From ANME-2 cluster archaeon (GTDB lineage: Archaea; Halobacteriota; Methanosarcinia; Methanosarcinales; Methanocomedenaceae): a DNA stretch of 34,075 nt. Shown piece by piece: positions 8,661 to 25,307 of the stretch. Position 1 is the stretch's first letter, and each line of letters begins with the position of its first letter. A program made the position numbers and the translations under genes. The notes under the pieces were generated by a model. The model saw nothing but the letters and a program-made list of their open reading frames with translations. It was not told where the DNA came from and ran no database searches. The stretch is from the NCBI GenBank assembly GCA_023544605.1, contig JAMJFQ010000003.1:1-34075 (forward strand), read 5' to 3'.

Positions 8661-9800
8661 TTATTTTACTTCCGGGAAACCCAGATTGTGTGCACTCTGG
8701 TGGCAAGTAGTACATCCACTTGACATCCCGTGCTTTGAACCATGACATGTGGTACATGAAGGGATATGTCCATGTTGTGGATGACAGTATGCACAATTCT
8801 TGTTGGTATGGCCTGTGACCTTTTCTATAAGATGTCTTGCATTCTCTTCATGACATCCTGCACATAGGGTCGAAGGCGTATCTGCCGGATAGTCCACCTG
8901 GGTTGGGATGTGGCCTTGCAAATGACACTGCTTACAGTCTTGTTGAGTCATTGTCTCATCATGGCCTTTATGACAGCTGGTACAATCCAGCCAGTCCCCA
9001 TGAACCGGGTGACATAGTGTGCAATCAAGCTCTGCATGCCTGGTTGGTTTGGTTTCAAATGTTGTCTCTATCACTGGAGAATGGCATTTAGCGCATTCAT
9101 TCTCGCTGACCAAAGAAGAGAACTCAATATCCCTTGGAGCATGGGCATTTATGTGACATTGTGAACAATCCTCAAATCCTGACGGATGATACACACCATG
9201 ACAGTCAGTACATTTTGGTTTATAACCATGCTGTGGATGACAGAAAGCACAACCTTTCTTGGAATGTTTACCTCCTTCCAGGTTTAATGATGCCACAGGT
9301 TTTACATGACATTCACCGCATGTCTGTTCAGACATGCCCCGTTCGTGTCCCTTATGACACGAATTACAATCTGTCACATCTTCATGAGGATTAATTAACC
9401 GCCGGCTGGTCCGTGAAATATAGTCTTCATGACATTTCAGGCAGCGCAACTTATTCTCAAGCGTCACTACCTCTTCCGGAGCCGGAGGTGCATCCAGGCC
9501 GGTCACATCATAAATGAGCATTTTTCCGATTTCTTTCTTGAATAACACTGTACCTAAACTTCCGGTTTCTTCATGGCACTGGGTGCATGTGATACCATGT
9601 TCATTGTGGAGAAAATCAAGGGAATCACCAGGAGTTATATATTTTTCATATTCAATTCCATGGCACATCTCACAGAATTCGGTTTTTGTTACGAAGTTCC
9701 AGCCTTCGGTTGCACTGAACACTACGATCAATGCCATTATTGCAATCAGTATTACTATCGTAATTCTTGTAGATAGTGCCATATCAATATCTCCATCCAT
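8661..9800 (-). CDS. Membrane-anchored multihaem c-type cytochrome (16 CXXCH motifs)
   Basis: N-terminal TM anchor (ITIVILIAIMALIVVFSA); 16 CXXCH motifs counted in 379 aa. Confidence 0.93.
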   Translation of the reverse strand: MDGDIDMALSTRITIVILIAIMALIVVFSATEGWNFVTKTEFCEMCHGIEYEKYITPGDSLDFLHNEHGITCTQCHEETGSLGTVLFKKEIGKMLIYDVTGLDAPPAPEEVVTLENKLRCLKCHEDYISRTSRRLINPHEDVTDCNSCHKGHERGMSEQTCGECHVKPVASLNLEGGKHSKKGCAFCHPQHGYKPKCTDCHGVYHPSGFEDCSQCHINAHAPRDIEFSSLVSENECAKCHSPVIETTFETKPTRHAELDCTLCHPVHGDWLDCTSCHKGHDETMTQQDCKQCHLQGHIPTQVDYPADTPSTLCAGCHEENARHLIEKVTGHTNKNCAYCHPQHGHIPSCTTCHGSKHGMSSGCTTCHQSAHNLGFPEVK

Positions 9801-19349: not shown

Positions 19350-19447
19350 TGTCGGGATGACCCTGTTGTATCTGCAGTAGTACCAAAGAGTTTTTATGGT
19401 TAGAATACTATTTTGAAGTCCACTGGTCAAATCGGTAAACGCCTGTG

Positions 19448-19548: not shown

Positions 19549-19654
<106 letters not shown>

Positions 19655-21047: not shown

Positions 21048-21761
21048 CTATCTGCTGCTATTTGATCTTTCCCTGTACAGAGCTGCACCCAGGGCATTGA
21101 CCAGCTGGGGTGCAATCGGTACTTCTATTTTTGAATCCAGCACAGCATTTACTGCATCGACTATACCTGTGTTCTGTACCGTACCACCAATGAGCATTAC
21201 CTTATCGGCAGGCGGGACCATCTGGGCGATACGCCGTGCAAAAGCCTGGTGCAGTCCGTATATGACGTCTTCCATAGTGTATCCCCCAACAAGCTGAGAG
21301 ATCATCTCAGATATAGCGAACACGCCACATGTGTTGTTTATCTGTACTTCTTTTGTTGCCCGTTGGTGCATATCGCCCAGAGAGTCGACAGGTATGTCAA
21401 AATAGCGTGCGGCCAGTTCTAAAAAAGCGCCTGTGCCTGCACTGCACTTATCGTTTATAATAAAGGTATTACTGCGCAGGTCGATGACTTTTGTGTCCTG
21501 CCCGCCGATATCAATAATAACCTGTGCCTCTGGGTCATGATATCTGGCACCCAGTGATGCAGCGGTTATTTCAGTTATTGCAGTAAAGTGGGGTACTTTC
21601 TTCCTGAAATAGCCGGTGGATATAATGCGCTTTTCATCCTGTCCATCATCTATCAGTTCCCTCCAGCGATGGCTCGGCACAACTTCTGAGAAAATTATCT
21701 CTCCTGTTTCCATATGCACTATTTTGGCAGTGGTACTGCCCACATCAAGCCCTATATTCAC
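21048..21761 (-). CDS. HgdC/BadF-type [4Fe-4S] ATPase, 2-hydroxyacyl-CoA dehydratase activator family
   Basis: MNIGLDVGSTTAKIVHM, IDIGGQDTKVI, NDKCSAGTGAFLE, NNTCGVFAISEMISQL, MLIGGTVQN. Confidence 0.88.
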   Translation of the reverse strand: MNIGLDVGSTTAKIVHMETGEIIFSEVVPSHRWRELIDDGQDEKRIISTGYFRKKVPHFTAITEITAASLGARYHDPEAQVIIDIGGQDTKVIDLRSNTFIINDKCSAGTGAFLELAARYFDIPVDSLGDMHQRATKEVQINNTCGVFAISEMISQLVGGYTMEDVIYGLHQAFARRIAQMVPPADKVMLIGGTVQNTGIVDAVNAVLDSKIEVPIAPQLVNALGAALYRERSNSSR

Positions 21762-22699
21762 GGCATTACCTCCAGCATCTCTGCAAAGGCTTCCAGCCTG
21801 AGCTTGAGCTGTTCAGAAGACGGGCGGGGCAGGTCGCCCTGGACGGTCAAGATGGGGTAATCAAGGTGCTGTCTGAATATTTCATCTTCCAGGGTATGAT
21901 GGCAGGCAAATTGGGTATAATGTATGACTCCATCTACACGCCTCTGGCGCAGTTCATCCTGTATGAACCATACCCTGGTCTCAATGGGCCCGGCAAATGA
22001 GTACTTTGTATAATTACGGGCCAGGGAATCAAGGTCACACCCCCCCAGACGTATGAACTCGTACGGCAGTTCATCATATACTATATGCAATCCGAAACCT
22101 TCAGCCACCTCATGGAAGTCCGGATATATGGGCGGGACACCAATAAGTGCCACCCTGCTGGTATATTCTACATCTGCTTCGGGTATGCTGTCAAGTGTTC
22201 TTTCAAATGCATCCAGGTCTCCTGCCAGGTCACTGAACGATATCAGTGCTGAGAACACATCACTTGCCCGTGCACGGTCATTCACCCTTTGTTCATCCAG
22301 TGCCTTGCCCCTGGATTTCAGGTCAGTGATGCGGGTAATTATTCCGTCATCTTGTACGCCGCCAAGAAACAAGCTGAGTTTTTCCAGTTGTGATCTAAAG
22401 TAATCTGTATCCCCATCAAAGGGATAAAAGAAATAATGAGTAGGCTTACCGCTCAGCTCTGCTTTTTGCCCATCCACCAGTGCGTTGTGGCAGTCACCGC
22501 CGGCAACCACTACCAGCGAATCAATGTCCAGTTCACCGCTCAGGATCATATCCCTCCACACAGCGGTCCAGGCACACAGTTTACTAGCCGGACTTGAGGA
22601 GGAGCCAGGTACTACATTGTTCACATCCAGGGGGCGCTTACCGCATGCATAAATGAGTTCAGGCGGCACCAGGGCAGTTATACCGACCGTATCTTTCAT
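21758..22699 (-). CDS. HgdB/BcrC/DCCP-type 2-hydroxyacyl-CoA dehydratase family protein
   Basis: VGITALVPPELIYACGKRPLDVNN, SKLCAWTAVWRD, GGDCHNAL, QFACHHTLEDEIFR; overlaps the activator by 4 bp. ATG at 22699 preferred; the longer TTG ORF (22756) runs into a MITE end. Confidence 0.8.
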   Translation of the reverse strand: MKDTVGITALVPPELIYACGKRPLDVNNVVPGSSSSPASKLCAWTAVWRDMILSGELDIDSLVVVAGGDCHNALVDGQKAELSGKPTHYFFYPFDGDTDYFRSQLEKLSLFLGGVQDDGIITRITDLKSRGKALDEQRVNDRARASDVFSALISFSDLAGDLDAFERTLDSIPEADVEYTSRVALIGVPPIYPDFHEVAEGFGLHIVYDELPYEFIRLGGCDLDSLARNYTKYSFAGPIETRVWFIQDELRQRRVDGVIHYTQFACHHTLEDEIFRQHLDYPILTVQGDLPRPSSEQLKLRLEAFAEMLEVMP

Positions 22700-23158: not shown

Positions 23159-24199
23159 ATGAAACTATCGGATTTTGATTACCACCTACCACAGGATATG
23201 ATAGCCCAGAAACCTGCCGACCCACGGGATTCTTCAAGATTGATGGTGCTCGATGAAAACGAGCGGCATCACAGTACTTTTTCTGAACTTCCCCATTTAT
23301 CGCATTCCCAAGATCTGTTGATATTGAATGACAGCAGGGTGATACCGGCCAGGTTATACGGTACCAAAAATACAGGTGGGAAAGTAGAAGTGCTACTGGT
23401 TAAACGGCTTGAGGATAAGTACTATGAATGCCTGGTCAGGGGTAGGGTAAAGGTGGGGGGGAAACTCAATTTTACGACTCTATCAGGCACAATAGAGGAA
23501 CGTGTAGACTCCCATACAGGATACCGTTATAATATCAGGTTCCAGTGTGATGAGGATTTCATGTCCTGTCTCTTCGTGGATGGAGTCATGCCAGTACCGC
23601 CCTATATTAAAGAGCATCTGGATGATGGAGAGAGGTACCAGACAATTTATTCAAGGGATGAAGGCTCTATTGCGGCACCCACTGCCGGACTGCATTTTAC
23701 AGCACAGTTACTTGACAGGATTAAGAAGATGGGAGTAAGGCTGGCATTTATCACACTGCACGTGGGTGTAGGCACATTCATGCCGGTTCGTGCCGAAGAT
23801 GTGGAAGAGCATACCATGGAGAGCGAATATTATACCATTGACGAAGATACCGCTCGTGCCATTAATGATACCATAAAGGGGGGAGGCAGGATAATCGTGG
23901 TCGGTACAACCACGGTCCGGGCGCTGGAAAGTGCGAATTGGCACAATGGCAACATTGCACCATCCCGGGGCTGGAGTGAGATATTCATACATCCCCCTTA
24001 CCAGTTCAAGACACCCATCAGTGGTCTGATCACCAATTTCCACCTTCCAAGATCAACACTGCTAATGCTGATCAGTGCCTATGCTGGCAGGGATGTGGTG
24101 CTGGCGGCATACAGCGAGGCCATTGCTAAGGGTTACAGGTTCTACAGTTTTGGAGATGCGATGTTCATTATGGGTAACAAGGAGGGGAAGAATGTTTGA
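23159..24199 (+). CDS. queA: S-adenosylmethionine:tRNA ribosyltransferase-isomerase (QueA)
   Basis: MKLSDFDYHLPQDMIAQKPADPRDSSRLMVLD, NDSRVIPARLYG, AAPTAGLHFT, LHVGVGTFMPVRAEDVEEHTMESEYY, NFHLPRSTLLMLISAYAG. Confidence 0.96.
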   Translation: MKLSDFDYHLPQDMIAQKPADPRDSSRLMVLDENERHHSTFSELPHLSHSQDLLILNDSRVIPARLYGTKNTGGKVEVLLVKRLEDKYYECLVRGRVKVGGKLNFTTLSGTIEERVDSHTGYRYNIRFQCDEDFMSCLFVDGVMPVPPYIKEHLDDGERYQTIYSRDEGSIAAPTAGLHFTAQLLDRIKKMGVRLAFITLHVGVGTFMPVRAEDVEEHTMESEYYTIDEDTARAINDTIKGGGRIIVVGTTTVRALESANWHNGNIAPSRGWSEIFIHPPYQFKTPISGLITNFHLPRSTLLMLISAYAGRDVVLAAYSEAIAKGYRFYSFGDAMFIMGNKEGKNV

Positions 24200-25307
24200 G
24201 ATAGTGCGCCAGGAAAAAATGTCTGGAGCAAGGGTGGGAAAACTGACCACACCTCACCAGGTTGTAGATACCCCGGCATTCATGCCTGTGGCGACCAAGG
24301 CCACGATCAAGACGCTTACTCCCAACGAGATACGTGAGATGGGAACCCAGGCCATCATAAGCAATGCCTTCCACCTCTATCTTAGCCCGGGTTACGAACT
24401 GATCCAGGAGGCAGGTGGCCTGCATACATTCATGGATTGGGACGGTGCCATTTTCACGGACAGCGGCGGGTTCCAGATATTGCGCAAGGAGTTCAGGTTC
24501 AAACTGAACAACAAGGGTATAAGTTATGTAAATTCCAGGGACGCAAAGCGATATATGTATACCCCTGAGCTGTGTATGGAAATACAGGGTGCCCTGGGTT
24601 CTGACGTGGCAATGGTGCTGGATGACTGCCCGCCCTGGGGCAGCACCCGTGATGAGGTCATGGAGTCGGTTTGCAGGACAGTGAACTGGGGGCAGCGCAG
24701 CCTTGATGCCAGGTGCAATAAAAACCAGCTGGTCTTTGCCATATTGCAGGGGGGGACATATCCTGAGATGCGGGAAGCCTGTGCCAGTCGATTAGTGGAT
24801 ATGGACTTTGACGGTTATGGTATCGGGGGATTGAGTATTGGCGAGCCAAAAGATGTCATGCATGAGACTATCAGGCTGAACCTGACCCAGATACCGCCTG
24901 AGAAGCCCCGCTACCTGATGGGAGTGGGCTCGCCCGTGGAACTGCTGGAATCCATATCATTGGGGGTTGACATCTTTGACAGTGCATTCCCCACCCGCAA
25001 CGCCCGGCACCAGACCGTGATGACCCGATACGGGCAGATGGATCTGCGGCGCTCATCCCTGGTTAGGGATTTCAGACCCATTGATGAGAAATGCGGCTGC
25101 TATACCTGCAGGCATTTTTCCAGGGCATATCTGTACCACCTGTTCAAGGAATCAGAACTGCTGGCCATGCGGCTTGCATCCATACATAATGTCCATTTCC
25201 TGCAAGAGTTGATGAGAGAGGCAAGGAATGCTATTTCAGAGGAGCGGTACAGTGAGTTTCGGGAACAGTTCAAGCGTGAATATTCAAGTCCGGCCAATAC
25301 AGCCTAA
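24192..25307 (+). CDS. tgt: tRNA-guanine transglycosylase, bacterial type (Tgt)
   Basis: TPAFMPVATKATIKTLTP, FTDSGGFQIL, LDDCPPW, FAILQGGTYPEMRE, GGLSIGEPKDVM, RYLMGVGSP, zinc motif CGCYTCRHFSRAYLYHL; 371 aa, no PUA domain. ATG at 24192 overlaps queA by 8 bp. Confidence 0.95.
   Translation: MFEIVRQEKMSGARVGKLTTPHQVVDTPAFMPVATKATIKTLTPNEIREMGTQAIISNAFHLYLSPGYELIQEAGGLHTFMDWDGAIFTDSGGFQILRKEFRFKLNNKGISYVNSRDAKRYMYTPELCMEIQGALGSDVAMVLDDCPPWGSTRDEVMESVCRTVNWGQRSLDARCNKNQLVFAILQGGTYPEMREACASRLVDMDFDGYGIGGLSIGEPKDVMHETIRLNLTQIPPEKPRYLMGVGSPVELLESISLGVDIFDSAFPTRNARHQTVMTRYGQMDLRRSSLVRDFRPIDEKCGCYTCRHFSRAYLYHLFKESELLAMRLASIHNVHFLQELMREARNAISEERYSEFREQFKREYSSPANTA

What the first reader, a model, noticed from the sequence alone, without database searches (positions are those of the whole stretch)
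23159..25307. Bacterial-type queuosine pair queA-tgt in an archaeal chromosome
QueA (epoxyqueuosine-forming step) and a 371-aa bacterial-type Tgt lacking the PUA/C-terminal domains of archaeal ArcTGT lie in a translationally coupled pair (8-bp overlap) between archaeal genes. Archaea normally modify G15 to archaeosine with ArcTGT and lack QueA. The Tgt has the D-x-C motif (LDDCPP) and GGLSIGEP seen in preQ1-accepting bacterial enzymes. This suggests an archaeon that may make queuosine at G34, perhaps alongside archaeosine. The adjacent MITE is consistent with lateral acquisition.
Basis: partly seen in the sequence, partly recalled or inferred. Interest (0 to 1): 0.8.

Follow-up and report, generated by a model that had tools for sequence, protein, structure and literature searches.

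The report
Archaeal queuosine genes with unusual reductase
This methane-cycling archaeon carries a bacterial-style set of genes for the tRNA modification queuosine, already reported in archaea, but it lacks the enzyme for one essential step, and the two genes next door look like an unrecognised ATP-driven replacement for it.

Summary
In detail: queA (23159-24199) and a bacterial-type tgt (24192-25307) overlap by 8 bp in an archaeal chromosome (ANME-2c type). The genome also has QueH, ArcTGT and ArcS, so queuosine at G34 alongside archaeosine at G15 is plausible. But this is neither isolated nor recent: queA is in 51 of 188 genomes of the order and 85 of 392 Thermoplasmatota, and QueA/QueH/Tgt were reported in DPANN and Methanosarcinales in 2021. 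The 'MITE' is a later insertion.

What is new is the missing step. QueF (preQ0 to preQ1) is on no archaeal contig tested in this order. The pair divergent from queA, an uncharacterised HGD-D/double-cubane-type Fe-S protein (21758-22699) and its HgdC-type ATPase (21048-21761), has its HGD-D gene in all 43 queA+ genomes tested here and in 1 of 16 without queA. It is linked to queA or queH in several lineages, including a five-gene queH-tgt-queA-HgdD-HgdC cluster. In Thermoplasmatota it is in 16 genomes, 15 with queA and none with QueF (41 other queA+ genomes have QueF). I propose that it replaces QueF as an ATP-driven nitrile reductase. This is inferred, not biochemically shown.

The parts
23159..24199 (+). 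queA, SAM:tRNA ribosyltransferase-isomerase (346 aa)
   Evidence: TIGR00113/NF001140/PF02547 over cut-off; PDB QueA 1yy3 9e-101
24192..25307 (+). tgt, bacterial-type tRNA-guanine(34) transglycosylase (371 aa), no PUA domain
   Evidence: TIGR00430 444 bits, ArcTGT model fails its cut-off; catalytic Asp and zinc motifs aligned with 2ash
21758..22699 (-). HGD-D/double-cubane-superfamily Fe-S protein (313 aa from ATG 22699; the ORF can be read from TTG 22756): proposed catalytic subunit of a QueF-replacing preQ0 reductase
   Evidence: PF06050 2.5e-26; phyletic co-occurrence with queA; AlphaFold pLDDT 85 with the fold of HadBC/BzdO/DCCP; C42, C70 and C266 invariant
21048..21761 (-). HgdC/BcrAD-type ATPase (237 aa), proposed ATP-driven electron injector for the HGD-D protein
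   Evidence: TIGR00241 182 bits over cut-off; activator of 2-hydroxyisocaproyl-CoA dehydratase 4eht 1e-53 with the bridging-cluster Cys motifs; subfamily present in 17 of 19 tested genomes with the close HGD-D type
   Evidence: relatives G017/G014 lack it

Best explanation
The locus belongs to an archaeal queuosine pathway. The archaeon makes preQ0 (which it needs anyway for archaeosine), reduces it to preQ1, exchanges preQ1 for G34 in GUN-anticodon tRNAs with the bacterial-type Tgt, adds the epoxycyclopentane with QueA, and removes the epoxide with QueH (encoded on contig C126). The preQ0-to-preQ1 step, done by QueF in bacteria and apparently in many Thermoplasmatota, is done here by the divergently transcribed pair at 21048-22699. 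An HgdC-type ATPase injects low-potential electrons into a three-cysteine [4Fe-4S] cluster of an HGD-D/double-cubane-superfamily protein, which reduces the nitrile by four electrons to the aminomethyl group. Shown: gene identities, absence of detectable QueF and QPTR, co-occurrence, synteny, exclusivity with QueF, fold superfamily, conserved cysteines. Inferred: the substrate (preQ0 base), the cluster and chemistry, and Q34 itself.
For: (1) QueF PF14489: none on archaeal contigs of the 43 queA+ genomes tested in the order; the single strong hit, in G049, lies on a phage-like contig with queC, folE and queE-like genes. No QPTR in the queA+ genomes tested. (2) HGD-D ortholog in 43/43 queA+ genomes (E<1e-100) against 1/16 queA- genomes; the exception G005 is 61% complete and has QueH. 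(3) All 6 non-Methanosarcinales genomes hit in the named-genome scan for HGD-D also encode QueA. (4) 392 Thermoplasmatota: HGD-D in 16, QueA in 15 of these (background 22%; Fisher 5e-10, no phylogenetic correction); QueF in 45; overlap HGD-D/QueF zero; among 60 genomes with a strong QueA, 14 HGD-D only, 38 QueF only, 0 both, 8 neither (p 2e-8, uncorrected). (5) Synteny: HGD-D divergent from queA-tgt in the ANME-2c genus and in Thermoplasmata bin33, and divergent from queA in Methanomassiliicoccales bin396; near queH in four Methanoperedens; all five genes within 5.2 kb in G191. (6) QueH co-occurs with HGD-D, so HGD-D does not replace the last step. (7) Fold of HadBC, BzdO and DCCP; DCCPs reduce acetylene, hydrazine and azide, and BzdO uses a [4Fe-4S]-OH2 cluster (PMC11971306).
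Against: No biochemistry; Q has not been measured in these organisms. The statistics treat genomes as independent; a branch-based test gave only 2 well-supported independent contrasts, 1.6 on average agreeing and none opposing. Ten of the 16 Thermoplasmatota homologs are divergent (about 27-36% identity; one of them, G262, lacks QueA) and may have a different function; with the six close ones alone the figures are 6/6 QueA (p 9e-5) and 0/6 QueF (p 0.016). Eight Thermoplasmatota with a strong QueA have neither QueF nor HGD-D. G188 and G189 lack the dedicated HgdC subfamily. QueC/D/E were not searched in the window's genome.
Confidence: 0.6

Rival explanations
1. The archaeon makes queuosine, but takes preQ1 from its surroundings through an unrecognised transporter; the HGD-D/HgdC pair does something else and travels with queA by shared ancestry.
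For: preQ1 salvage is common in bacteria and new transporter families keep being found (PMC11130926); ANME live in consortia; eight queA+ Thermoplasmatota have neither QueF nor HGD-D.
Against: Does not explain recurrent linkage of HGD-D to queA/queH in separate classes, zero overlap with QueF, or 43/43 co-occurrence. QPTR is absent, and ArcTGT plus ArcS imply that preQ0 is available in the cell.
Confidence: 0.2
2. The pair acts on the queuosine pathway at another point, for example reducing preQ0 after Tgt has put it into tRNA, or forming a different G34 derivative.
For: Genomic evidence fixes the pathway and the exclusivity with QueF, not whether the substrate is the free base or preQ0-tRNA. 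Archaeal ArcS acts on preQ0 already in tRNA (PMC11298593, abstract).
Against: Tgt keeps the bacterial preQ1-type motifs; QueA is the normal preQ1-tRNA enzyme and QueH is retained.
Confidence: 0.14
3. One reading: a recent lateral acquisition of queA-tgt marked by a MITE.
For: The proteins are of bacterial families and an inverted repeat lies between the genes.
Against: Lineage-wide distribution, archaeal grouping of QueA, G+C like the neighbours, and the repeat is absent from every other fetched locus.
Confidence: 0.03
4. QueA and Tgt have been recruited for something other than queuosine.
For: Q has not been measured in these archaea.
Against: Both score over equivalog cut-offs, QueH is co-distributed, and Tgt active-site motifs are intact.
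Confidence: 0.03

Closest known systems
QueA/QueH/Tgt in DPANN archaea and Methanosarcinales (Castelle et al. 2021, PMC8204110)
   Same: Same three enzymes, same order among the hosts, often co-localised
   Different: The passages read report only the last three steps, in 34 archaeal genomes; the paper's main text does not contain the word QueF in our search and no mention of the HGD-D/HgdC pair was seen
QueF, NADPH-dependent preQ0 reductase (PF14489)
   Same: Proposed same reaction and pathway position; found in other queA+ archaea
   Different: Unrelated T-fold protein without Fe-S cluster or ATP (established knowledge); never found in the same Thermoplasmatota genome as the HGD-D protein
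Double-cubane cluster protein DCCP and its reductase DCCP-R (6eno, 7yyl)
   Same: Same superfamily, fold and two-component ATP-driven design
   Different: The family here is about 100 residues shorter, has three cysteines invariant across the 16 members aligned, and is far below the NCBIfam double_cubane cut-off (33 of 350 bits)
2-hydroxyacyl-CoA dehydratases and class I benzoyl-CoA reductases (HadBC/HadI, BzdNO)
   Same: Fold, HgdC-type activator, three-Cys [4Fe-4S] type of cluster site
   Different: Those are heterodimers acting on CoA thioesters; here there is one short catalytic gene, linked to tRNA-modification genes

Membership tests
QueA (TIGR00113) | Full-length match over equivalog cut-off | tested here: met
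   397 bits against 267
Bacterial-type Tgt (TIGR00430) | Over equivalog cut-off, no PUA, catalytic Asp and zinc motifs | tested here: met
   444 bits against 307; alignment to 2ash
Archaeal ArcTGT | TIGR00432 cut-off | tested here: not met
   163 of 350 bits
Queuosine pathway | QueH or QueG for the last step | tested here: met
   QueH at C126:6035-6538, 203 bits
Queuosine pathway | QueF for preQ0 reduction | tested here: not met
   No match in the genome
Queuosine pathway | preQ0 synthesis QueD/QueE/QueC | not tested
Queuosine pathway | Q present at G34 | not testable with these tools
   Needs LC-MS or APB gel
BCR/HAD/DCCP superfamily (PF06050) | Domain match, fold and cluster cysteines | tested here: met
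   2.5e-26; Foldseek to 3o3n 2e-14; C42, C70, C266 invariant in 16 sequences
Double-cubane anaerobic reductase (NF040772) | Equivalog cut-off 350 bits | tested here: not met
   33 bits
HgdC/archerase-type ATPase (TIGR00241) | Cut-off 125 bits and the two cluster cysteines | tested here: met
   182 bits; C106 and C145 invariant

The most novel reading that the evidence does not exclude
A second, unrelated class of enzyme for reducing a nitrile to an amine: an oxygen-sensitive, ATP-driven Fe-S reductase of the BCR/HAD/DCCP superfamily that makes preQ1, allowing anaerobic archaea to synthesise queuosine from scratch without QueF.
Probability: 0.55. Interest if true: 0.85.

Novelty: new variant of a known kind. 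Interest (0 to 1): 0.7.

Why it matters
A 2024 paper by specialists still states that only bacteria synthesise queuosine de novo (PMC11130926). If the inference is right, several archaeal lineages do so while also making archaeosine, with a non-homologous enzyme at the one step where the known pathway is broken. It would give a physiological role to a branch of a reductase superfamily whose small-molecule-reducing members have no clear biological substrate (PMC11971306), add a second enzyme class for nitrile-to-amine reduction (to my knowledge QueF is the only one known), and correct the '2-hydroxyglutaryl-CoA dehydratase' family label on dozens of archaeal genes. It is directly testable in laboratory E. 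coli.

Tried and rejected
Chimeric contig: rejected, relatives share the arrangement. MITE as a mark of transfer: rejected. preQ1 riboswitch or other Rfam element upstream of queA: none at gathering thresholds in the window. QueF in G044 and G071: weak hits; the G044 one is a FolE-like (GTP cyclohydrolase I) frame beside a queE-like radical-SAM gene. QueF in G049: phage-like contig. HGD-D as a replacement of the epoxide-removing step: rejected because QueH co-occurs. The recurrent DUF62-like gene upstream of queA in Methanoperedenaceae as a reductase: rejected, wrong chemistry for that fold (my knowledge of the family). Literature linking queuosine to 2-hydroxyglutaryl-CoA dehydratase: no paper in the held library.

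Full report
Observation. queA runs 23159-24199 and tgt 24192-25307, overlapping by 8 bp. Both score over the curated equivalog cut-offs for tRNA preQ1(34) ribosyltransferase-isomerase and tRNA guanosine(34) transglycosylase, and the ArcTGT model fails its cut-off. The Tgt aligns over its whole length with bacterial Tgt structures, with catalytic-Asp contexts (TDSGGFQ, FDSAFPTR), DDC, GGLSIGEP and the CxCxxC...H zinc site. The window is G000 contig C23 of a 1.63-Mb, 97% complete, 0% contaminated genome. Named relatives are ANME-2 MAGs; the own family includes ANME-2 cluster archaeon HR1, which I take, from my own knowledge, to be ANME-2c.

Pathway in the genome. G000 also encodes an ArcTGT (C25, 485-aa frame), a third TGT-domain gene of ArcS size (C78, 633-aa frame) and QueH (C126, 203 bits). 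So the archaeosine and queuosine tailoring enzymes coexist. QueC/D/E were not searched in G000.

Distribution. QueA is in 51 of 188 genomes of the order: nearly all of the own family, Methanoperedenaceae (f4), and one GoM-Arc1-type genus of f2; no match is listed for f3, and the f5 genomes tested (which I take to be Methanosarcinaceae) lack QueH and a bacterial-type Tgt. bTgt lies beside queA in nearly all carriers. In Thermoplasmatota QueA is in 85 of 392 genomes. In a QueA tree with seven bacterial sequences, archaeal QueAs group together apart from one (SH-aLRT 89, limited bacterial sampling), and the window's QueA sits with its ANME relatives. Castelle et al. 2021 already reported QueA, QueH and Tgt in 34 archaeal genomes, including DPANN and Methanosarcinales. 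The finding as titled is therefore known and not recent.

The missing step. Tgt and QueA need preQ1, made from preQ0 by QueF. PF14489 finds no QueF on any archaeal contig among the queA+ genomes tested in the order. The one strong hit, in G049, is on a contig of phage-like genes (RecA-like, DNA polymerase, exonuclease) with its own queC, folE and queE-like genes. The QPTR transporter family is absent from the queA+ genomes tested too; QueT was not tested.

The neighbouring pair. Divergent from queA lie two genes that overlap each other: an HGD-D domain protein (PF06050) and an HgdC-type ATPase. Homolog starts put the HGD-D start at ATG 22699, leaving a 459-bp gap to queA that holds the inverted repeat; in G017 and G014 the gap is about 100 bp and the repeat is absent.

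Co-occurrence in the order. Of 59 genomes searched for the HGD-D protein, all 43 with QueA have an ortholog (E below 1e-100, at least 55% identity). Of the 16 without QueA only G005 does; it is 61% complete and has QueH. Paralogs elsewhere score no better than about 1e-7.

Outside the order. A scan of 85,462 named genomes found 51 loci, all archaeal. All six tested non-Methanosarcinales genomes with an HGD-D ortholog also encode QueA. Gene order repeats: tgt-queA divergent from HGD-D in Thermoplasmata bin33 (L166), queA divergent from HGD-D in Methanomassiliicoccales bin396 (L159), in both with one ACT-domain-like gene between, and queH, tgt, queA, HGD-D and HgdC within 5.2 kb in G191 (L283). 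In four Methanoperedens genomes the pair lies a few genes from queH.

Exclusivity with QueF. In 392 Thermoplasmatota genomes HGD-D is in 16, QueF in 45, both in none. Fifteen of the 16 HGD-D genomes and 41 of the 45 QueF genomes have QueA. Among 60 genomes with a strong QueA match, 14 have HGD-D only, 38 QueF only, 8 neither. The p-values (5e-10 for HGD-D with QueA, 2e-8 for exclusivity) ignore relatedness; a branch-based test had too few contrasts to be significant, though none opposed. Ten of the 16 are divergent homologs (about 27-36% identity) that may differ in function; with the six close ones alone, 6/6 have QueA (p 9e-5) and 0/6 QueF (p 0.016).

What the pair is. The HGD-D protein matches no curated equivalog over its cut-off (best: double_cubane, 33 of 350 bits). 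Its AlphaFold model (pLDDT 85) matches 2-hydroxyisocaproyl-CoA dehydratase, benzoyl-CoA-type reductases and DCCP. Across 16 diverse members C42, C70 and C266 are invariant, which fits a three-cysteine [4Fe-4S] cluster with an open site, the [4Fe-4S]-OH2 type described for BzdO and HADs (PMC11971306). The ATPase matches the activator of 2-hydroxyisocaproyl-CoA dehydratase (1e-53), including the two bridging-cluster cysteines. A dedicated HgdC subfamily (E below 1e-80) is present in 17 of the 19 genomes tested that carry the close HGD-D type, sometimes unlinked, and in none of the others tested.

Mechanism proposed. ATP-dependent injection of low-potential electrons into the HGD-D cluster reduces the nitrile of preQ0 to the aminomethyl group of preQ1. 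DCCP relatives reduce acetylene, hydrazine and azide (PMC11971306), so a nitrile is a reasonable substrate for this chemistry. QueH co-occurs with the pair, so the pair does not replace the epoxide-removing step. Substrate, chemistry and Q34 are inferred. The main rivals are preQ1 salvage by an unknown transporter, and action on preQ0 already in tRNA.

Verdict. The real interest is the QueF-less archaeal queuosine pathway and its candidate Fe-S reductase, for which I found no report in the held literature.

Noticed in passing
L108 (G049:C66:1-20000): Phage-like contig binned with a Methanoperedens genome carries queF, queC, folE and queE-like genes with phage-like replication genes, suggesting viral 7-deazaguanine DNA modification.
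   Followed up: partly
window 19549-19652 (+): Rfam calls a 104-nt tRNA (54 bits) that ARAGORN misses, just after the tRNA-Arg at 19447; it may hold an intron or a long variable arm.
   Followed up: no
L081, L082, L083, L084, L087, L088, L089: A gene resembling DUF62 / SAM hydroxide adenosyltransferase (about 260 aa) lies upstream of queA in seven Methanoperedenaceae loci; the name is from memory of the family, not from a profile search.
   Followed up: no
Thermoplasmatota genomes such as G235, G381, G558: Divergent QueA-like matches, several in 640-783-aa open frames; 21 of the 25 genomes with weaker QueA hits have neither QueF nor HGD-D, so these may do something else.
   Followed up: no
L273, L278 (G213, G270): A divergent HGD-D/HgdC pair is followed by a large HgdC-containing protein (1464 aa in L273; 673 aa to the contig end in L278), so the divergent subfamily may belong to a different reductase system.
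   Followed up: no
window 8661-9800 (-): Multihaem c-type cytochrome, ordinary for ANME archaea.
   Followed up: no
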